64,000 bases of DNA from Favolaschia claudopus. Lineage: Eukaryota > Basidiomycota > Agaricomycetes > Agaricales > Mycenaceae. Below, in pieces: positions 42,095 through 60,936 of this stretch. A model generated the notes under the pieces. The model did no database searches and had not been told where the DNA came from. It saw only the letters and a program-made list of their open reading frames with translations. Position 1 is the stretch's first letter. The number at the start of each line of letters is the position of its first letter. The stretch is from the NCBI GenBank assembly GCA_037176885.1, contig JAWWNJ010000033.1, positions 930,001-994,000 on the forward strand, read 5' to 3'. A program made the position numbers and the translations under genes.

Positions 42095-43640
42095 ATCTCG
42101 TGAAAACCACCATCATTGAAGAGGATGCAGTCAATGGTATTGTCTCCGACGCCGCACATGACATCTGGCGAGACAAGAAGGCCTTACTCCCCGTTAGCTC
42201 CACCTACGAGGCGAAGTTTCTTCACTGCTGGATCCCTGCCCTTATCTCCTATTCGGACGGTGGCTCAGCTCAGCACTACCACGTCCATTTCTACCAGCTG
42301 TTCAAGAGTATTGCGGAGGAATGCGAGTCGCGGAGTATCGCAGTCATGGACGAGATGTTCGCAAATGTCAGTTCTTCTTCTTCCCTAATTTCTGTATGGC
42401 GTGTGTGCTCAGATTTTGTATCTTTTAGGTTATAGACTTCAGCGGAGCTGAACACAACGGTTTCATACTCGCGTTCATTGATTTTTGGAGAGATCAATCC
42501 CCCAACGCGCGTTCGGTCCAGGAACTACAAACGACGGGTCAAACTTTGCTCAAAGGCTGCGCTCAACACTACCGAAGCCAAGTCGCACGCATTAAGAAAA
42601 TCAGCGCCGTTGTCTCACCCGAACTCGCGGACGCGTTCTACAATCGTGCGACGGGGCTGCTCCGCTGCGAAAATATTGCCGAGTTTGAACAGCAGGCGGA
42701 GAGGCTCATCGCTGACTTCCCGCGAGTAGCGCCGTGGATGCGGTGGTGGATGTACCCGCCTCATTCGCATATGCTCTTTCCCGGGCTCAAGGTCATGAAG
42801 ACCGCGGTGTGGAATTCAATGCCCAACACGACAAACGCTCAGGAGGCCGGCCATTCTAAACTCTTGAAACTCGTTCCAAAGAAGATGGCAGTTCTCGATG
42901 GCTTACAAGAACTGTTACCGTACGTTGAGCATTACAAGATTCAATACGATGCGGCGAGTCGTAAGTCTTCAATATCATCTCTCTCTCTCCCTCATGCTCA
43001 TTCTCTCCTTTTTAGATGGGGTGAAAATACACTACGGCGAGAGCCGGGAATATTGGAAAACGACGAAGGACCTTATTGGTCGCACCAAAGGCAACCGCGT
43101 CCCGGAAACCTCCAAGAGCGCACATGACGATCATCGGCCACCCGACACTGCGAAGGCTTTGGTTCGCTCCACTCCGGCAACGCCTGCGAAAGGGGCACGC
43201 ACAGGCGTAATAACTCCACTCTCGTTCGAGGGTGGATACAAATGGGACAGGAACTCGTGCTGGCTCGATGCTTCATTGACAGCCATTTTCCCCGCTGCGT
43301 CGCAAGATTACGTCGCAAGATTACACCAATATCATCGAGCCTTTCTTTGCCATTGTTCCGAATCAACATCCTCTGCAAGATCTTCGCCAGCACATACACA
43401 CCCGCCTCATTACCGACCTGCGTGACTTCAAGGAGGGCGGCTACACAATCTTAGCGTTACAGCGAAACGCAATCCGAGAGAAGCTAGTAGGTCTTGAAGG
43501 GTATCCAGTCACCTCTATTTCCGCATTTCAGAGTGTCTTTGTGCGTTTGCTCCACTGCTTTTATATTCTTTACATACTCACACTGCACAATCTTAGGACT
43601 GGATTCGTTTCATTACTCGCCCTCCCGATCGAAGGCAGCC
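40958..43640 (+). CDS. MULE-like transposase with C19-like peptidase domain, 5' and middle exons
   Basis: Predicted exons: from 40958 (other in-frame ATGs follow before 41051) to 41153, 41219-42366, 42429-42960, 43016-43540 and 43597-43640, the last being cut by the Plavaka-like element; GT-AG introns of about 55-65 nt. Domains in order: proline-rich linker; a FLYWCH/GCM-type zinc module (RRECHGIIECSNSECSM, CRGCGGQLVHDDC, NGGTHNH); a MULE-like DDE region with VIDFSGAEHNG, LLKGCAQHYRSQ and SMPNTTNAQEAGHS carrying the probable catalytic Glu; then GGYKWDRNSCWLDASLTAIF, a Cys box like that of C19 ubiquitin proteases. A 13-bp tandem duplication at 43298-43323 shifts the frame inside this domain (DYTNIIEPFF continues in the next frame). 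The gene thus cannot make the full protein. The peptidase assignment rests on the Cys box only. Confidence 0.6.
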
Positions 43641-44376
43641 TCTGTCGGAAATTTGAAAATTGCCTCATGAGAGATTTATGTCATGAGGCTCTCACGATAG
43701 CATTATGACAGACTCGTGCGACTGTTATGAGCTGACGGCATTCTCATCGGCGCCTCGCAAGACCTTGCTTTGCACACAAAACCGCTCTTCTCAGCTTTTC
43801 TGTACCCCTACCTCTTCGGAAGCATACAAGGCTCTTCGTTGCTTCACTCTGACCCTCTACCACCTCTGTATTGTGATCTCATACTCGTCCCAACGCAACA
43901 CGTCGTCGAGACCGCCGACATCGTTTCTGAATGAGCGCAGTCACTTCCAACATCCATGCTGCCCCCACAAATCATTCTCCATTGAAAATTACCTCGAACT
44001 CGTTCTGGAAATGTTCTTTCAGCAGCCGGATTGCTCGTTTTCGTGCGACCGAGAAGCCTGCTATGTATCGTGATGCGAAGAATGCAAGAAACATAGTACT
44101 CATGAGGACAACATTGATAAATGAGTAGAGGGACAGTCAGATGGAATTCAAAAGGCACGCGTTTCTTTTGCTTTGGACTTCCAATCCCATTGCTCTGAGT
44201 CTTTGTAGACGACCGTGATGCGCCTCTTTCCCTACTAAAGGCATCCCCCAGCTACACCCCTTGTCCATGGTCTTGTGATTATCTAGTTGAATACAATCTG
44301 ATTCACAAAAGCATATGTTTGACTGGCGCACCCCTCCTCGTAGTTCAAGCGACAACATTTCAGCCATCCGAAGTTT

Positions 44377-47300
44377 CTATGATTCTGAGATATAAGTGGG
44401 ATACAAGCCTCGCAATCTCAAGAACATGTCAGCGTCTATAATATCAACGACCAGATAATCTCCCTTGCGGCTGAAATCAGGCACAATGAAGGCACCACGA
44501 ACAATAGAATGAACTGAAATGAATTCACAGTGCTTCCGTTGGCGCTCGCGAACACGACACAGTCCCAGCGCTTTATCCTTTGCCGTCCTCGCGCCTGTTC
44601 CGACATCCAGGGCTTGCACCAGCGCAAACGGGTGGGTTTTGTCTTCCATCTTGTAGGTGAAAACGTAGACGAGGCGCACAAAGATATGCCCGTCAATGGT
44701 CTTCACCAGGGCTGCGTCATATCGTTCCGAGTTGTGGAAGGATGGGCTACAGCGAAGATAATCTGTATCGTCGATCCAAGTTTCCAGCGACTGGAAGAAG
44801 ACTTTCAAAAATTGAAAAGGGACGATCTGCGCGCGTGTAAGCAAACGAAAGATGTGGATTAGTGGAGTCTCACTTCCTGAGTGGGTTGGAGAGCCACACG
44901 CTTGCCCTGCGGAAGGGTGTAACCAAAGGCTGGAAGAAAGGTGTTCAAGAACTCCGCAAATCGAAGGCGAAATCGCGCAAAGGCGGCGTCCTCTTTCATG
45001 ACATTTTCCAAGTCGGCGAACGAGGTCGGCGTCTTTCTGGAACCCACCACGACATTTCCCACTGCCTCGGTGTCTGAAGGTGCTTGCTGTTCGGGATCAT
45101 CATCGTCTAAAAAGATCTCCTGATCATCGAGCTGGTCACGGATGTACTTCGCAACTAGAGTTCTATGAAGAGAGCGTAGAATCTTGAAAGAATTTAGTCA
45201 CTGTTTTCATTATCTCAAAGCAAAGACTTCTGACGCACCTGCGGAGTTACATTTTTGAAATTTGTTTGTCGTAGATAGGCAGCTCTTGTTGCGGCATGCA
45301 TTGATTCGTCGATTTTGGCTCCAAAATTTCTGCTAGCCCCCTTCCGAACAATGTCGTCGAAGGCGTGCTGCTGGAGATGCATCTTCGGAAAATTCCAGTT
45401 CTTGTCAGCGAACGGCGTATTTACACAGGCGTCTCGATACTCCTGAATCAGATCTGTTAGATGTAGCGACCTCTGCCGTTGAAAATTCACCTACTTTCAT
45501 CAGTCGATCCAACTTCTGGAGATGTCGACGGCCAGCTGCGATTGTTTCCGTAGTATGGAGCTCCAAGCCAACGTAGACATCGACTTCGAGGTAGCTGCGC
45601 AAGCATTGAAGCAGAAGAAAACCTGCCTTGTTTGTAAGAACGTCGTGCGAGGCATACACCATCATTTTTGCAATGTCTTCATGCTTCGAGCCGTCGTTGA
45701 AGCTGATATTTGTGACCGACTGGAAGTGATTTAGGTTTCGCCATCGGGGGAAACTGTTGAAACTAAAGCGAGGTTATCTCATTATCGGCCTGGTTCAATG
45801 ATTGATCAAATTTAATTTTGTCTTACTGTTTATCAACTTTTGCAGCCGCTCGACCCTCGAGATTCTCCAGATGAGCCTTAACCTGACCTATGAGATGGTC
45901 TCCTCCGAGACCACTGTGATTGTAGTGGAGACGCTCGAAGGATGCGGCATGGTGTGGGTCGGAATTTGCGACGTTCCAAAACGCGTTCTGGAACTTGGAT
46001 GAGACCACTTGAAAAATGAGAGGAAAAGTGCGCTACTTCGACCTTGCGCAGCCCTAAACCTTTCAGCAGGTTCTCCCCTGCCTCAGCACTTGAGGACTGA
46101 GCGGTTTCAACAGCTTCTTTAGACCCTTGTGCAGTTCTCAGGTCAGCGATGATGGTTAAATCAGACTGTTCGTCACGGTGAATTAAACAGACAGGGCAAG
46201 GGTGATTGCCTCCAGAGCCACGGATCAGCGTCATGACTGAGCTACGTGAATAAGTCAGACTTTCGAAGAGGGAATAAAGAACCCAGAAAACTCTTACGCT
46301 TCTTCGTAATCAGCGGCCAGAATCAAAACTACCGGAAAGAGCCAGCGTTCTTTGCCATCGCCACACAATGTCCATATTCCCGTCTTAGAGTGTCGAGCCA
46401 CAGACTCTAGCAGCTTGTAAAACGAAGCATGCCATACTGCGTTCTTGAAATTAACATATCTGGTCTTGCCAGACTCAGCTGTATCGACTTGGACCTGTAA
46501 ATGAGGAAATTCAACGAAGAAACAGGCAATAGGTGCAGAAATTGTACCACAGGAAGCTCGCCCACTACTTGGCCTCCTCCCCAGTCGTCACTATTTCGTA
46601 CGCCTACGACAACGTTGGCCAGCCGGGCGATGATTGGGTAAGCCTTTTGCGTTCCAAATGAAGACAGTTTTGATTTGTCTGCGTACAGAATGAACGGGCA
46701 TGGTTTTGCGTCAGGATTATCAGGCAGCTTAGACTGCCAATATCTTCAGCCTCAGCATTCTGTGAAAGAAGATTGAGCTGGAGCAAACCTGGATCTCCCA
46801 AAGGGCGTCAGCTGTCCATGGCTCATTCCAAAAGCGTATAAACGAGTTGCCATTGTGCCGAAACATTCTGACAGAGTCCCAGACGAAGCAGCGAGAGAGG
46901 GAGGGATCTTTGATGAGATCCACCGCCCAGTCCCACAGTGGTCGCGCATACATGTCGAAGGTTACCGTGGTTGGACCACTGCTGTTTTTGTACGGGACCT
47001 CAACATCGTACTTCTTGAACTGTGTTTCTCCGTCAAGAAAAGATGAGGCTTTGAAGAGGAAGGGCTACGTACATCTGTACATTTCTTGGCTGCTGCATCC
47101 CATTGTTTGTCTATGTCGGCAGATTGCACAATTGTTAGATCTTCCATGTTGGCGGCACATCGTCGTATTAAAGCGATCAATTTGTTGGTTGCAGCTCGGT
47201 TCAGCATATTCTCTTGAGCAAATTCTGCAACCTCGAAATCAATTCGGGTGTGGAACGGGGCCCATGGTGTATCATTTGTGGAAGGAACTCGTCGACGTGC

Positions 47301-47884
47301 AGATTCCTGTAGCAGATATTCTCTAAGAGTACATGCCTCCGAAGGGCGTTTGCTATGGGGATGATAATTATACTGAATGTCGTCTTGATTGGGGTCGTCC
47401 GGAATCTCGGAGCGTTGCTCTGGCTCTCGCGAAATCGGCGGCGGCGGTTCAGGATCTGAGAATCATGATGTCCATTGAAGGCTAGAGATTAGAATGTAGT
47501 TTTAACGCTCACCGTGCGTGTCAGGTTCAAATATAGGGAATAAATTGCCTACAACTTGAACATCTGCTCCAATTCCAGACTTCTGCGTGAATTCCAACGA
47601 CAATGACGAATTTCGGCTTACCCGGATTTGGGAGAGAGGGAAGAGGCAGATTTTCTAGACGCGTAAAGAGATGAGAGGCATGTCACCGGGAGGTGTGATA
47701 TATATGTATTACCTTCGCGTCCATCGCCGTTTTCAAGGACCTGAACTTGAAGTTGCTGAGCAAAAGCCATTGATTGAGCCTGCACCATTCGTCTCTTGGC
47801 GCACGCCTTTTCATGACTTCCAATGCCTCTCAACTTGATCAGCTCCCCGCAGTGTTTGCAAGGACGCTTCGGAGCCTCAGCCAT
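44377..47884 (-). CDS. Plavaka-type (CACTA-like) DDE transposase, multi-exon
   Basis: Starts at ATG 47884 with a zinc finger (CKHCGELIKLRGIGSHEKAC). Then ATNKLIALIRRCAANM, RPLWDWAVDLIKDPSLS, and the catalytic domain: Asp in FILYADKSKLSSFGTQKAYP (about 46700), WHASFYKLLESVARHSKTG, LAADYEEA, PCPVCLIHRDEQSD (zinc cluster), KNWNFPKMHLQQHAFDDI and the Glu region NFGAKIDESMHAATRAAY (about 45310). The C-terminal beta-rich module is CSPSFHNSERYDAALV to YLVVDIIDADMFLRLRG. Introns of about 50-60 nt fit between these exons, for instance in the region 45455-45490 (GTAGGT to AACAG) and 44820-44870. I noticed no stop or frameshift in the exons that I joined, so it may be functional. It would act on the TGTCGG ends of the host element. 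Confidence 0.75.
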
Positions 47885-48735
47885 CTGTCGTCACGGTCGT
47901 AGATGCAGCAGAGAAGGCGACTCGGAGTTGAGATGATAAGTTTGAACTTTGCAGGATGTGCAGGTTCCTGGAGGTTGAATCGCGTCCGTTCCAAGATTCA
48001 AGGACACCCGTGAATTCTGGACGCGTCCAGTCACAGTCTCAGCGTCACGGCGTGTTGTTGAGGACAACGCGGCGCGTGTGTGGTTACAAGTTTGCTGGAA
48101 GTCCCAAAAAGGCAATCATCTCATCACTGCCAACACAACCTCCCGCTTTCCTCAGGCCTTCTGGATGTCATTCGCGTCAAGATGAGCATCGATTCAACCT
48201 ATATCTGCAGAGAACAAGCATTCCACGCGATCTACAGCCCAAATCTTACTCTGAATCCGCTAGGATGTTTCTGCACCATATCCATCTCTGCCAATCCCGA
48301 CTAGATCTGACGACGAATCCTCATCTTGACCTCAAAAGGCGTGCGGGGGCTACGTTGAGTTGTGAGGGGAGTAGGAACAGCTAGGAATGCGGCACGGAGA
48401 GCTCAGAATTCGAGCTAGAAATGAGACGAAGTTTCAGAACTTGGTGAGCTATCATCATTCACCCTCCTTCCCCCTCGAAGCATTCCTGTCGTATCTCAAA
48501 CGGTCCATGTTTGAACTGTATTTACCCCTGTGCGGCACCCGTCCCAAGAATCGGTACCCGGATCTGGGACGCGAAGGGTTGCCGCACGCAACCAGGGCCG
48601 AGTTTTGGACCAACATGTTTCGTTTTTTATCTCTTATGCTCCATCTCATACCCGTGAGGACTACAGTCTGATTTTATTGGTTCGTTACCTTCTAGAACCG
48701 GCAGCCGACAATTCGAGCGGTATGAAGCCTAGGAT
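47885..48735. other. stretch between transposase and CDC48 copy
   Basis: Probably the promoter region of the divergent transposase. No gene or repeat is recognised; frames on both strands are short. Confidence 0.3.
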
Positions 48736-48739
48736 ATAC

Positions 48740-55974
<7,235 letters not shown>

Positions 55975-55983
55975 ATGGTCCCT

Positions 55984-57177
55984 GGGCAGGGGTAAATTGA
56001 CGCGGCAGACGTTTGACTGACGCGTCAGTGACGCGCCGCGTTTGGACATTGACGCGCGACGCGCTGATCTCTTCACCGAACTGACGCGGGCAGCTTGAAC
56101 GTCGCGCAAAGCAACTTTTTAAAATGCTTGAACGTTGAAAAAATTTCATCCAAGGACGAAGGTCGTCAATCCTGTGCTGTTTCCAGCCTGTTGATGACGT
56201 TGAACTTGAACAAGTACCTTTTTTCTTTTGTGCACCGTAGGTCCACATTGGTTCAATAGTTGTACTTCATCGAGGTCGACGTTGAGTTGAATGCATGGAG
56301 ATTAGTCCCTCGTGGTTAATTTGAGTTGTGGTCCAATTTTGAAGCAGGACTCCACCAAACCATGTTCAAATCGGCAATCAAAATACATTGTTGTCAGCGC
56401 TAAAAGAGAAAGCAGAACAATGAGGTAAACTATCCTTTCCCACCGAAAGAATGTGCTTAGAAATACTCAAGAGATACCCCAGGAAGATGCTGAAAATTGT
56501 TAGGAGTAAACCACTGAGGTTTAGTGGCTGTCAGACTCGATGCCTTCAACACTAATGATTTACTATTATGCGAATAACTTGCCCAAAAACCCAAGATCAA
56601 CTAGTTTCCTTTCGTTCCCTGCTTTGCGTTTAGTAAACAAGTGTACTGAACAAAAAATCTCGAGATTGTTTTTGCACTGTTAGAGCGCGTCACTTTAGCT
56701 TCCAGCTCTTGGGGGCGGTGCGATCTTGACGCACAGTTATAAGCCGGCTTCTAATGGAATTGACGCTGGAAGGTACTATCATTGACGTTGAAGACAATTC
56801 CCATTGACGCGGCGCGCGCCGGGACTGACGCGCCGACGCGCCGACACAAAAGTTTTGACGCGGCAACTTGGCGATTCGGCGCGAAACCTTGACGCGACCA
56901 AGCCATTGACGCGGCATCACTGACATGTGATTGACGTGTCTCGACGTTCCAAGTAATTTTGGGCAAGAGTTTTCCGCACAACATCGATTACCAACAACAA
57001 ACATGAGTGTGCAAAAGTATAGATATAGACCTTCATAAGTCCTCCATACCATAGGTAAGCAAAATTTGATTGTTGACGTAGAGTTTGAAAAGTGACAAGA
57101 AATTTGACGCAATGTGACTGACGCGAACTGACGCGCGCGCGTCAGAACGTCAGTGCCGCGTCAAAATCCCTTTGCCC
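55984..57177. mobile_element. MULE-type non-autonomous element with TGACGCG arrays
   Basis: Target duplication of 9 bp, ATGGTCCCT (55975-55983 and 57178-57186), the length typical of Mutator-like elements. Ends GGGCAGGGGTAAATTGACGC and, inverted, GGGCAAAGGGATTTTGACGC. The word TGACGCG or its complement is repeated many times within about 200 bp of the left end and in the right third (56750-57165). No transposase frame. Confidence 0.8.
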
Positions 57178-57186
57178 ATGGTCCCT

Positions 57187-57240
57187 CAGTGTCGAACCAA
57201 GATATCCTGTGTTATACTCCCGGTTCGTCCCCCCCTTTAC
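57187..57240 (+). pseudogene. CDC48: CDC48 pseudogene, last recognisable codons
   Basis: After the 9-bp duplication the sequence resumes with a segment corresponding to the conserved SVSxQDIRRYE-like end of CDC48 (here from CAGTGTCGAACCAAGATATC), with indels. Similarity fades by about 57230, so the disordered tail is absent or diverged. Confidence 0.5.
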
Positions 57241-57565
57241 TAATTCACTCATATCTGATTCCCATGTGAAGGCTTCTTTCAAAACGCAATACGCACGATC
57301 TCCGAAAACCTCGATAACACGAAAGTCGTGATAGTCTTCTACGATGTCTCACTCAATTTCTTCGTCATGACTGTGAGTTCACGTTCTGTCCCATATATGT
57401 ATTGACATGACTGACACCCACTGCGATACCAGCACGAAGCCCAATTCTCTATGCCTGTTAGCTGTCTTTGGGATTGACCTTTGCTTTGGTTACATTCATT
57501 GATTGTGCATGGAATAGTATCACTGCTAGGGACCACGGACAGGCGGAGGTTGAGGTCATTCTCCG

Positions 57566-59195
57566 TACATTCAATATTCCCGGTGCAGATGCAACGGTCG
57601 ATGAGCTGCGTGAGGTATTAAGCTTATAGTTGCTTTTGACGACGATTCTGATTTTTTTTTTTCATGTAGGCATTGAGAGAAACCCAGTTAGAGCTAGCTC
57701 GTACTCAAGTAGAACTGCGCGCCTACCAGACTATCGCTCAGACAACAAGCGGCAGCAAGAAGAAACCCCAGGCTAATCCGCATAAATATCTCGATGCTAT
57801 TCAAGCTTTAGGGAAAAGCTTTGCGCTTATGCATGAGCCTTGGCTCACTTCCGCAGTCTTTGGTGCTCGCCCCGCTGACGGCCCACCTGCACATAGCACT
57901 GCAGAAGAGATTGACGCGATTTTCAAATCATCTAAGCTCTACAATCGCTTGCTTACCTGCATTTTGTACGAGCACGTTCCCGTGAAGTTCCACTCTCTAG
58001 TCGATGCGTCTTCCTTCCCAGGCTTCAAAGATAATGTCAGCTCTGGTTCACCGATGAATTTTTTTACTGACGGTTTTGCAGTTTTTGAGATACATGAGCA
58101 TTGGCCGTTCCAACTTTGTGGAGCGTCTTAAAGCTTCTTGGGAGAAACTGCAGACAGAATCCGATATGAAGAGAACTCCAGAGGAGTTCTTATACTTTCC
58201 TGGAGACGACAAGTCAAAGCTGCCCTTACTTTCTCCCCCCATTTTCTATTCTGGCTTGAAGAAGGACGCGAAGGGCTGGCTACTGAACCCTATTCTTCCA
58301 ATGGTGAGTTGATTGTGTCTGCTTCAAATGCAAAAGGCTCAGTTTTATACTTGTAGAGTCTGCGATGCCTCCTGTACGGCCCCGCCAGCATCAAGGACAA
58401 AGGCAAGGCGAAGCCTACGTCAAAGACATACGGGGTCATGTGGAACATCCAGGAATTGACGATCGAGAGCATCTCTTTCGTTTTGATTGCGGTAAGAACA
58501 GTACTGCACCATTACCTTGACGCTTCACGAAACGATAACATGTAGATCTTCTTTGTATTGTCTGACAAGGACACATCGTTTGAAGAGAAAGGGAAGACTT
58601 CACACATACCCTATCAGTCTCATTTCCACGCGCATAAAACCCGTCTCATGAAATATCGCGACACTGCTGGAGTTCGCAACATAATTCGCTTTTGGTCAGA
58701 GATTGTTTTTGCCGGTGTTTCACGAACTGTCACAGAAGGGCCTTTGAACGACTCCGACGCTGAGGCTGCATCAGATGCAGAGTTTGCGCAAGCAATGGAA
58801 GAACTTTCGCTGGGGGACGTTGACGATGGCGATGATGAAGGTATGTGAGAGATTTCATTCACATCACGGAATTACATGTGGGACTCGAAGGAGATCAACA
58901 TATACCGGAACGTCAAGCAACCCCTCCTCCCGGCCCAAATCCAGCAGCGCGCGAAGAGGAGGACTTAAGTCCTTTGTCGGAAGATGAGCCTGTGGCACCA
59001 GTAGTACAAGGAAGACCTCGAGGCGCGGCGCCGGCAACACGTGGAAAGAGGGTCCCCGCTGTGGTGGTACCTGAGGGTGATAACGGTGCGGCAGACGACG
59101 AGACTGAGCCAGTTGCGGAGTTGGCGCAAGGAAGAGGCAGAGGAAAAAAGCGAGGGCGTGGTACAAGTCGGGGTAGAAGGGGACGAGGCACGTAA
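57566..59195 (+). CDS. multi-exon protein of unknown function, Plavaka cargo
   Basis: Joined exons: from about 57533 (QAEVEVILRTFNIPGADATV) over an intron at about 57615-57669 to ALRETQLELARTQVELRAYQ, LGKSFALMHEPWLTSAVFGA, YNRLLTCILYEHVPVKFHSL; intron 58035-58080; FLRYMSIGRSNFVERLKASW, PEEFLYFPGDDK; intron about 58303-58356; SLRCLLYGPASIKDKGKA, YGVMWNIQELTIESISFVLI; intron 58490-58545; IFFVLSDKDTSFEE, RNIIRFWSEIVFAG, then an acidic and finally an RG-rich tail (GRGRGKKRGRGTSRGRRGRG). The fold is helical with an N-terminal coiled coil. It resembles a family much expanded in Agaricomycetes, but I cannot name a function. It looks intact except that the first exon is not fixed and the join to the RG-rich tail near 58848 is uncertain. 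Confidence 0.55.
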
Positions 59196-59339
59196 AGTCA
59201 GGCGAGAAGTCAAATACATACAGTTGGCGATGTAGACGGTAGTAGCAGAAGACGTGGATAATAGTTTGAGGCAAAAGAAATGCGGACCCATCTTATTCAC
59301 CCGCTCAGCTATTCATATAATGGACATCTAGTAGAGTAG

Positions 59340-59405
59340 TTAGTAGCATGAACTATAGAGAAATTTTGTACAACCAAGGTCGCGCGTTCGATTCTGACTC
59401 AGTAC
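59340..59405 (+). ncRNA. possible tRNA-derived SINE head
   Basis: A box-A-like TAGTAGAGTAG (one mismatch) at about 59330 and a box-B-like GCGTTCGATTC at about 59383 are about 50 nt apart, as in a tRNA gene, and an A/T-rich tail follows (to about 59520). The acceptor strands pair poorly. No target duplication was found. Confidence 0.35.
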
Positions 59406-59564
59406 CATAGCTTATATCACAATATCACAATGTATTACAACGAGCACTAAATTTAAATTAAAGAACAATAACAATAATCACTTGTAATCCCTTGTGAAGC
59501 GAAATTAACAATTAAATACTTACTAATAATGTGTCTGACAGGACTACCAAACAAGCCAATGATA

Positions 59565-59841
59565 CAGCTGTTTTACGGTTTTTGTCCGGTTTTTGATCGA
59601 GTGGGGCATTTCGTTTGTTGTTTACACCTGTATGCCTCTGAGTCACCGTATGGCTCCACTCTGACCTCAGATTGGGCTATTTCCAGCCATTTTGCTCCAC
59701 CAGTGAATGCAGTGGGGCTGCGGTGGAGCGGTTGAACTGCCTCCGGCTCCTCGGCGAGGGTATGCACAAGCAATCACAGGTAAACAACTTTTGAAGAACC
59801 CCACTCTATCAAAAACCGGACAAAAACCGTAAAACAGCTGT
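59565..59841. mobile_element. mariner-type MITE, 277 bp
   Basis: Ends CAGCTGTTTTACGGTTTTTG and its inverse match over about 43 bp with a single mismatch and are flanked by TA (59563-59564 and 59842-59843). Non-coding. It lies in the right subterminal part of the Plavaka-like element, so it is younger. Confidence 0.85.
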
Positions 59842-60125
59842 AAGAACCGACTTCAATATATTTTATTCGCTCGATTACCCTAATCTCATGAGGCTAAATG
59901 TGCCTAGGCCATTCTCATGAACGTCGTGTGAGCCAAGTCATTTCCTATATGACGAGATAAGATATTCTTTCCTCATATTATATGATAATCTCATTAGATA
60001 GTCGGATCCTGTGCCGATCTCGTGCGAAATGACTTCTCTCATGTTGTTCTCATAAGATCAGTTTGTCTCACAGCCTCGTGAGGCATCATAAAGTCTCATG
60101 ACGTGATTACCAAATTTCCGACATC

Positions 60126-60936
60126 CACCCATCAACCTCGAACGCGCTATCTGTTATTTTGGCTCTTGCAGTGTCGTCTTCAAGAGCTGCGATGGCGCTG
60201 ATCACGATCACTTTCAACTCGAGCGAATCAAGTGGAGAAAGCCGTTCGTTGTTTCTCCAGAGCTATGCCGCTGGTACAAAGGCAGCTTGCGTGACTGGTT
60301 CTTCGATCTCATGAAGCCGGATAAAGGGGAGCGCATGACCGCATGTTGGCAGGCGCTCGACGGTAACCGGTTTTGTTCAGGAGCCCTGAGCGCTGCGAAC
60401 AGTGGTTGGGCGCGAACGGAATGGACCCCACTCCCGAACTCAGCGCGCTCATAACACATGCTTTGGCTCGCTTGATGAAGGCTCCGAAACTGGTGGAAAT
60501 TTTGTCGGAGGATGAGCAAACAGCCCGAGTATGCAGCGTTGGTGCGGTATTGCTGCAACTCTTGGCGATCCAGCACGAGTTGAATGAGCCATTCAATCTC
60601 AATGGCGATTTATTCTTGGACATCACTCGGGACAGGGTTGTTGTGCGCGAGAAGTTTCAAGGTCTCTTAGCCTTGGATCTCATGCTCACCGAACTCTGGG
60701 ATGTTCGTCATGGCATTGCGACCTTGATGAACTTCAAGAAGAATCATACTGTATGGATCGAGGATCACCCCCCTCTCTTCAAGCGAATTGCTCCGTCGCA
60801 ATTCCTCCCGTCTCCTGCCATTTCAGTGGTCTTACGGTCGAAGAAGAAGCTCGCGAGGAAAGGGTTGATAGCTCGCAAACCTGGAGTCACAATTGTTTCC
60901 CCACGGAAATTGCGCTCCGGTTCTATTCTTCTATGA
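60126..60936 (+). CDS. MULE-like transposase / peptidase gene, 3' part
   Basis: Continues the gene cut at 43640: with one TC copy removed the frame reads RQPPPINLERAICYFGSC across the site. Then WRKPFVVSPELCRWYKGSLR and CWQALDG, and after an apparent frame change near 60370 SPERCEQWLGANGMDPTPEL, TARVCSVGAVLLQLLAIQHE, LNEPFNLNGDLFLDITRDRV, ending with a basic tail and TGA at 60934-60936. The part may complete the C19-like domain, but I do not see its His box clearly. The frame change at 60370 could be a short intron or an indel. Confidence 0.5.

What the first reader, a model, noticed from the sequence alone, without database searches (positions are those of the whole stretch)
43643..60123. 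16.5-kb Plavaka-like transposon carrying a captured CDC48
TIRs, a 2-bp duplication and a frame in the host gene that is restored when the element is removed delimit one element. It holds its own transposase with all catalytic motifs, an intron-containing CDC48 copy that spans nearly the whole gene, and a second multi-exon gene. Capture of a whole essential AAA ATPase gene by a CACTA-like element in a mushroom is, to my knowledge, not a standard observation.
Basis: partly seen in the sequence, partly recalled or inferred. Interest (0 to 1): 0.9.

Follow-up and report, generated by a model that had tools for sequence, protein, structure and literature searches.

The report
Jumping gene carrying dead CDC48 copy
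This fungal genome holds a 16.5-kb jumping element of the Plavaka family that carries a broken copy of the essential gene CDC48 and a scrap of a SEC24-like gene, most likely copied from the host as DNA, and seven other places in the genome hold the same order of transposase, CDC48 and partner gene.

Summary
Six other sites in the genome show the same host sequence without it, fixing the borders at 43643-60123 with a TC duplication. Termini (TGT..ACA), duplication length and transposase (Pfam Plavaka, 1.7e-41) fit PlavakaA.

It is not a lone insertion. Eight places, window included, hold transposase, CDC48 and second gene in one order. CDC48 DNA matches group into about 38 places; three are intact, syntenic host CDC48 genes.

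The transposase is intact in 6 of 8 copies examined, the second gene (DUF6698) in 6 of 10; both are under purifying selection (dN/dS 0.10-0.21 between diverged lineages). CDC48 is incomplete and frame-broken in 13 of 13 copies examined (about eight lineages), with dN/dS 0.22-0.48; in the window two later insertions also split it. Its introns were kept, so it was copied as DNA. A SEC24-like fragment lies beside it.

Best reading: a two-gene Plavaka that duplicated host DNA and amplified it as a now-dead passenger, as known for histone H3 in a hAT transposon. A formerly useful CDC48 is not excluded: its dN/dS is well below 1, and an older relative holds a CDC48 scrap at nearly the same place.

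The parts
43643..60123 (.). Whole PlavakaA-type element, 16,481 bp
   Evidence: six paralogous empty sites
43641..43642 (.). left copy of the TC target duplication
60124..60125 (.). right copy of the TC target duplication
43643..43672 (+). left terminal inverted repeat, begins TGTCGG
60094..60123 (-). right terminal inverted repeat, ends CCGACA
44380..47884 (-). Plavaka transposase gene, 13 exon blocks, open; intact in 6 of 8 copies examined, dN/dS 0.10-0.18 between diverged lineages
48532..48587 (.). hairpin-forming block conserved among copies between transposase and CDC48; role unknown
48840..49625 (+). CDC48 pseudogene, first part (host exon 3 to exon 6), with introns and a stop at codon 82
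49626..54007 (.). nested insertion 1 in CDC48: 71-nt inverted ends (83%) a few bases inside its borders, 8-bp duplication TCATGGCG (49618-49625 / 54008-54015); also present in the C53 copy
54008..54313 (+). CDC48 pseudogene, second part
54314..54646 (.). about 333 bp without match in the host gene or the other element copies at this point (C53 apart); origin unknown
54647..55983 (+). CDC48 pseudogene, third part (D1 end, D2 AAA domain; PF00004 2.1e-26, AAA_lid_3 1.3e-13)
55984..57177 (.). nested insertion 2 in the CDC48 tail, inverted ends, 9-bp duplication ATGGTCCCT; absent from the near-identical copy on C53
57181..57214 (+). last recognisable CDC48 stretch (about codons 758-769)
57255..57454 (+). 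SEC24-like fragment with its intron, 77% to a SEC24-type gene on C34
57531..58842 (+). second gene, DUF6698 (PF20414), five exon blocks open here; intact in 6 of 10 copies examined, dN/dS 0.13-0.21 between diverged lineages
59563..59842 (.). fold-back repeat, 78-nt arms 81% complementary, probably a small nested element

Best explanation
This is a PlavakaA-type DNA transposon with a two-gene core (transposase plus DUF6698 protein) that likely picked up host DNA by copying during repair, and it now carries a dead CDC48 copy and a SEC24-like fragment as passengers. Shown here: borders and target duplication; transposase and DUF6698 open and under purifying selection across copies; the same order of transposase, CDC48 and DUF6698 in eight places; three intact host CDC48 loci elsewhere; CDC48 introns and 3' flank retained; CDC48 broken in every copy examined. 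Inferred: the transposase moves the element by cut-and-paste; excision gaps were filled from ectopic host DNA (transduplication), first taking a block from about the end of CDC48 exon 1 to at least 1.4 kb past its stop codon, and separately a piece of a SEC24-like gene; the block was then amplified with the element, trimmed, shuffled between copies by recombination and lost its function. In the window copy two later insertions split CDC48 further. The DUF6698 protein is predicted to serve the element, perhaps as an accessory DNA-binding factor; its biochemical role is untested.
For: Six paralogous empty sites. TGT..ACA termini and 2-bp duplication equal the published PlavakaA rule (PMC12730594, passages); PF18759 1.7e-41. 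Eight places with the three genes in order. Transposase intact in 6 of 8 copies and DUF6698 in 6 of 10, dN/dS 0.10-0.21 between diverged lineages. CDC48 broken in 13 of 13 copies, dN/dS 0.22-0.48 between diverged element copies; the synonymous/replacement balance differs from the transposase of the same pairs in 5 of 6 pairs, Fisher p 3e-4 or lower, and not in C189-C3a, p 0.19. Private codon changes 117 synonymous: 294 replacement against 54: 41 for changes shared by two or more element copies. Host CDC48 genes: 0 replacement differences in 820 codons, dS 0.13-0.20. Element-specific 5' junction shared by W, C189, C3b, C139 and C3c; a longer capture starting at the exon 1/intron 1 border, in the same element context, at C21:98900; host DNA to 1.47 kb past the stop codon in C3b and C189. 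SEC24-like piece at 12 element places and 5 other loci.
Against: CDC48 dN/dS in the elements is well below 1, and a stricter private count gives 0.29-0.34 for element copies against 0.12-0.13 for the two core genes, so pure neutral decay since capture is not shown. Ancestral states were not reconstructed. Most other copies lack the leading T of the terminus (6 of 7 other left ends) or the final A (8 of 10 other right ends), and no target duplication is visible at the two other copies with both ends checked, C3b and C189. Some single-base indels (C86, C3:4499 above all) may be sequencing errors. Single capture is inferred from shared junctions; the CDC48 tree is close to a star, with 5 of 9 inner branches weak, and copies are mosaic, so repeated capture or gene conversion is possible. 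The window's own 35-aa SEC24-like stretch alone has no SEC24 Pfam match; the call rests on its 77% identity to C34.
Confidence: 0.83

Rival explanations
1. The transposon carried a working, element-adapted Cdc48 for a time after capture (with a new 5' end), selection kept it during the spread of the family, and all sampled copies decayed later.
For: Pairwise CDC48 dN/dS among diverged elements is 0.22-0.48, not 1; changes shared by several element copies are 54 synonymous: 41 replacement. A 1-nt deletion at codon 54 shared by W, C189, C3b and C139 puts the new upstream reading frame in phase with exon 4 (the phase reading is mine). An older relative on C38 (transposase about 71% identical in DNA) holds a CDC48 P-loop scrap 1.68 kb from the transposase start, against 1.65 kb in the window.
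Against: Every copy examined is broken (13 of 13), while transposase and DUF6698 are intact in 6 of 8 and 6 of 10. Low dN/dS can be imported from the host, whose three loci differ at 68-100 synonymous sites and no replacement site.
Confidence: 0.15
2. CDC48 was captured several times, or was refreshed repeatedly by gene conversion with the host CDC48 loci, so the element copies are a patchwork of host alleles. This can be true together with the best explanation.
For: Blocks of high identity switch partners along the gene: C3b-C139 95-99% in the first 600 bp, C139-C3a 98-99% at 2001-2400; host H25 is closer to element C189 (94%) than to the other hosts (90, 89%) at 401-600, and W, C189 and C3a share H25-type intron 4. 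Near-star tree.
Against: The element-side 5' sequence and junction are shared by five lineages, which fits one capture. Ancestral host polymorphism would give some of the same pattern.
Confidence: 0.4
3. The two terminal repeats belong to different insertions and CDC48 lies in its ancestral place.
For: None found.
Against: Six empty sites join both flanks exactly; three syntenic intact CDC48 loci lie elsewhere; both ends enclose the same genes in C189 and C3b.
Confidence: 0.01

Closest known systems
PlavakaA (CMCT/CACTA-like DNA transposons of Agaricomycotina; PMC12730594, passages seen)
   Same: Pfam Plavaka transposase, TGT..ACA ends, 2-bp target duplication
   Different: In the passages seen, cargo in Plavaka was TET/JBP dioxygenase, in PlavakaB only; here CDC48 and SEC24-like host DNA, plus a conserved DUF6698 gene
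Histone H3 transduplicated by a hAT transposon in Pseudocercospora fijiensis (PMC6710886, abstract and outline seen)
   Same: A housekeeping gene captured by a fungal DNA transposon, amplified, copies inactive, the original kept by purifying selection
   Different: hAT not Plavaka; copies there inactivated by RIP; here a long intron-rich AAA ATPase gene, tens not hundreds of places, decay by indels and insertions (RIP not tested)
Gene capture by Helitrons in Pleurotus ostreatus (PMC4289320, passages seen)
   Same: Genes carried by a mobile element in a mushroom
   Different: Rolling-circle elements without terminal inverted repeats or target duplication (recalled); some captured genes there of unknown origin and function
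Pack-TYPE gene-fragment capture in plants (search listing only, PMC8903248)
   Same: Host coding DNA carried inside a DNA transposon
   Different: Pack-TYPE elements are non-autonomous (abstract start in the listing); this one keeps an intact transposase

Membership tests
Plavaka transposase family (PF18759) | transposase domain above the curated cut-off | tested here: met
   1.7e-41, 143 bits against cut-off 26.3, profile 6-322 of 325
PlavakaA | termini 5'-TGT..ACA-3' | tested here: met
   TGTCGG..CCGACA in the window; of the other copies looked at, C3b (both ends) and C53 (right end) have it, the rest begin GTCGG or end CCGAC with another base outside
PlavakaA | 2-bp target site duplication | tested here: met
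   TC, proved by six empty sites for the window copy; not visible at C3b and C189
PlavakaA | C(2)C and H(3-4)H motifs between second D and last E | tested here: inconclusive
   CPVC is present in the translation; the H motif and the catalytic residues were not mapped
PlavakaA | place in the transposase tree | not tested
   no reference Plavaka sequences were at hand
Transduplication (capture of host DNA by a TIR transposon) | donor gene still present elsewhere | tested here: met
   three intact syntenic CDC48 loci; SEC24-like genes at C34, C63, C68, C399, C185
Transduplication (capture of host DNA by a TIR transposon) | introns kept, so DNA-level copying | tested here: met
   CDC48 introns align with the host's; intron in the SEC24-like piece
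Transduplication (capture of host DNA by a TIR transposon) | captured piece amplified with the element | tested here: met
   eight places with transposase, CDC48 and DUF6698 in order
Functional CDC48 | open frame over N, D1 and D2 domains | tested here: not met
   13 of 13 non-host copies examined are broken
Helitron | no terminal inverted repeats or target duplication | tested here: not met
   TIRs and TC duplication present; the definition is recalled

The most novel reading that the evidence does not exclude
A Plavaka lineage took over the cell's Cdc48 unfoldase as its own transposition helper, in the way that phage Mu depends on ClpX to take apart its transposase complex (recalled); the cargo was kept under selection and renewed from host CDC48 by gene conversion, and we now see its decay.
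Probability: 0.12. Interest if true: 0.88.

Novelty: new member of a known kind. Interest (0 to 1): 0.5.

Why it matters
It adds an essential, intron-rich AAA ATPase gene and a SEC24-like fragment to the housekeeping genes known to be copied and amplified by fungal DNA transposons, and does so in Plavaka, an understudied group. One genome holds a series (intact host loci, long captures, trimmed captures, scraps), so capture, trimming and exchange with the host gene can be followed. It also marks DUF6698, a family of unknown function, as a constrained partner gene of a Plavaka transposase. The many CDC48 look-alikes could mislead gene counts and RNA-seq mapping in this genome.

Tried and rejected
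Considered and dropped: chimaera of two insertions (empty sites); CDC48 in its ancestral place; CDC48 as intact cargo; second gene as a neighbour of host CDC48 (no match on C24, C25 or C161 among the 60 matches). Rfam for 48400-48750 around the conserved block: no match. Pfam for host-gene pieces and for open frames inside nested insertion 1: no match. Right end of the element in the fetched tails of C139, C3:4499 and C86: not found. The C3:2905120 copy lies near a piece of a more distant Plavaka transposase (56-64% in protein) in another orientation; I take this as a neighbour, not part of it.

Full report
OBSERVATION. The inverted repeats 43643-43672 and 60094-60123 are 83% complementary over 30 nt. 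A search with each flank gave the same six other places, the two matches overlapping by 2 bp. The joined flanks with a single TC align unbroken to all six, and the frame is open across the join there and cut in the window. Borders and the TC duplication are therefore proved by paralogous empty sites. No same-locus empty allele was available.

ANATOMY. The transposase runs on the minus strand in 13 exon blocks and matches Pfam Plavaka at 1.7e-41. Ends and duplication are those published for PlavakaA (PMC12730594, passages). Then come a conserved hairpin block (48532-48587; the fold of 48532-48628 has z -2.2, with 7 of 200 shuffles as good; no Rfam match), the CDC48 pseudogene, a SEC24-like fragment and a DUF6698 gene. 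The CDC48 pseudogene is interrupted by insertion 1 (49626-54007, 8-bp duplication) and insertion 2 (55984-57177, 9-bp duplication). A near-identical copy on C53 (99-100% in its main aligned pieces, beginning at window 48905, so lacking the left end and transposase) has insertion 1 and lacks insertion 2, which makes it a true empty site for the latter (no C53 match to the transposase).

FAMILY. Transposase, CDC48 and second gene follow each other in the same order in eight places: C33 (window), C189, C3:3227510 (called C3b), C3:4499 (C3a), C86, C139:591334, C40 and C21:1962588. Both ends were matched for C33, C189, C3b and C40. The 52 CDC48 matches group, by my count, into 38 places (a lower bound; some of the weak ones, such as C54 and C35, may be other AAA genes). 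Several copies are near-identical groups (C3a, C86, C40, C21; and C139:96874 with C59), so places are not independent events.

HOST GENE. C24, C161 and C25 hold an intact ten-exon CDC48 of 820 codons with collinear flanks; a 3-kb downstream flank of C24 has full matches only on C25 and C161, plus one 68-nt match inside the element on C3. The three differ by no amino acid in the 820 codons compared, with dS 0.13-0.20 (one in-frame codon insertion in C161). Whether they are alleles, homeologs or duplicates was not settled.

STATE OF THE GENES. Of eight transposase copies examined six are intact (window, C189, C3b, three on C21); of ten DUF6698 copies six are intact (window, C189, C3b, C3a, C139, C40), C86, C53, C14 and C56 being broken. 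dN/dS between diverged lineages is 0.10-0.18 and 0.13-0.21 (pairs with dS of 0.022 or less give noisy values up to 0.68). All 13 non-host CDC48 copies examined are incomplete and frame-broken; with near-identical ones grouped, that is about eight lineages. Seven frame-breaking differences of the window copy are shared with C53, so they are not read errors of one contig. CDC48 dN/dS between diverged element copies is 0.22-0.48, 1.3 to 4.3 times that of the transposase in the same six pairs; the difference is significant in five of six. Codon states private to one of six element copies are 117 synonymous to 294 replacement, those shared by two or more are 54 to 41; this count leaves out states equal to any host and so favours replacements. 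A stricter count that needs all other rows to agree gives a ratio of 0.29-0.34 for CDC48 against 0.12 (transposase) and 0.13 (DUF6698). The data thus show strong relaxation, not neutrality from the moment of capture.

CAPTURE. CDC48 introns and part of the 3' flank are present, so DNA was copied, not mRNA. Five copies (window, C189, C3b, C139, C3:2905120) share the element-side 5' sequence and the junction in exon 3. The copy at C21:95377-98900 lies in the same element context (matching window 48066-48679) but starts at the exon 1/intron 1 border, and C3b and C189 keep host DNA up to 1.47 kb past the stop codon. Identity blocks change partner along the gene, host C25 has an element-like intron 4, and the tree is near a star; recombination between copies is clear, and exchange with host loci is likely but could be old host polymorphism. 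The SEC24-like piece occurs in 12 element places, the window included, and in five other loci. Gap repair with template switching is the mechanism I infer; nothing here shows it directly.

OLDER RELATIVE. On C38 a left end (89% over 46 nt) and a transposase about 71% identical in DNA are followed by a CDC48 scrap (132 nt aligned, 76% to host, codons 227-270) 1.68 kb from the transposase start; in the window the same codon lies 1.65 kb away. No convincing match to the second gene or to another CDC48 exon was found in the 21.2 kb fetched there. It suggests that CDC48 came into this lineage early or more than once.

COMPARISON. Membership in Plavaka is tested and met; PlavakaA by ends and duplication is met for the window copy, tree position untested. 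The process matches transduplication as described for histone H3 in a hAT transposon (PMC6710886, abstract and outline). In the held library 11 papers mention Plavaka (ten listed); CDC48 with transposon and mushroom gave two unrelated papers, and CDC48 with 'transposable element' and 'basidiomycet' none. I therefore know of no printed case of a Plavaka-borne CDC48, within those searches only.

VERDICT. A real, well-delimited element with a surprising but dead passenger; a new member of a known kind. Interest is held up by the size and nature of the captured gene, the second captured gene, the constrained DUF6698 partner and the chance to see capture and decay in series.

Noticed in passing
C38:1457345-1466220 (L074, L075): Older Plavaka relative with a CDC48 scrap 1.68 kb from the transposase start, close to the place where CDC48 lies in the window element.
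   Followed up: partly
C21:1946870-1967000 (L044, L045, L046): Three near-identical transposase units in tandem, spaced about 7.86 kb, beside a CDC48 and DUF6698 copy.
   Followed up: partly
window 48532-48587: Hairpin-forming block conserved (80-97% over the matched part) at 21 other places, many of them members of this family, while its neighbourhood has diverged; no Rfam match.
   Followed up: partly
window 57255-57454 and L078: SEC24-like fragment captured with an intron; five SEC24-like loci elsewhere (C34, C63, C68, C399, C185).
   Followed up: yes
C210, C137, C30, C27, C21:1568390, C130: Six short CDC48 pieces (132-138 nt, within window 55099-55235) at 95-96% identity, probably in deletion derivatives.
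   Followed up: no
host locus C25 (L025), CDC48 intron 4: Intron of a host CDC48 gene resembles the element copies rather than the other two host genes.
   Followed up: partly
window 42429-43642 and 60124-60936: The gene hit by the element belongs to a repeated family with at least six copies elsewhere; no Pfam match in the pieces tried.
   Followed up: partly
window 59563-59842: Fold-back repeat with 78-nt arms, perhaps a small nested element; near the right end of the transposon.
   Followed up: no
C24, C161, C25: Three intact syntenic host CDC48 genes with dS 0.13-0.20 and no replacement difference; ploidy or hybrid origin of the assembly not settled.
   Followed up: partly
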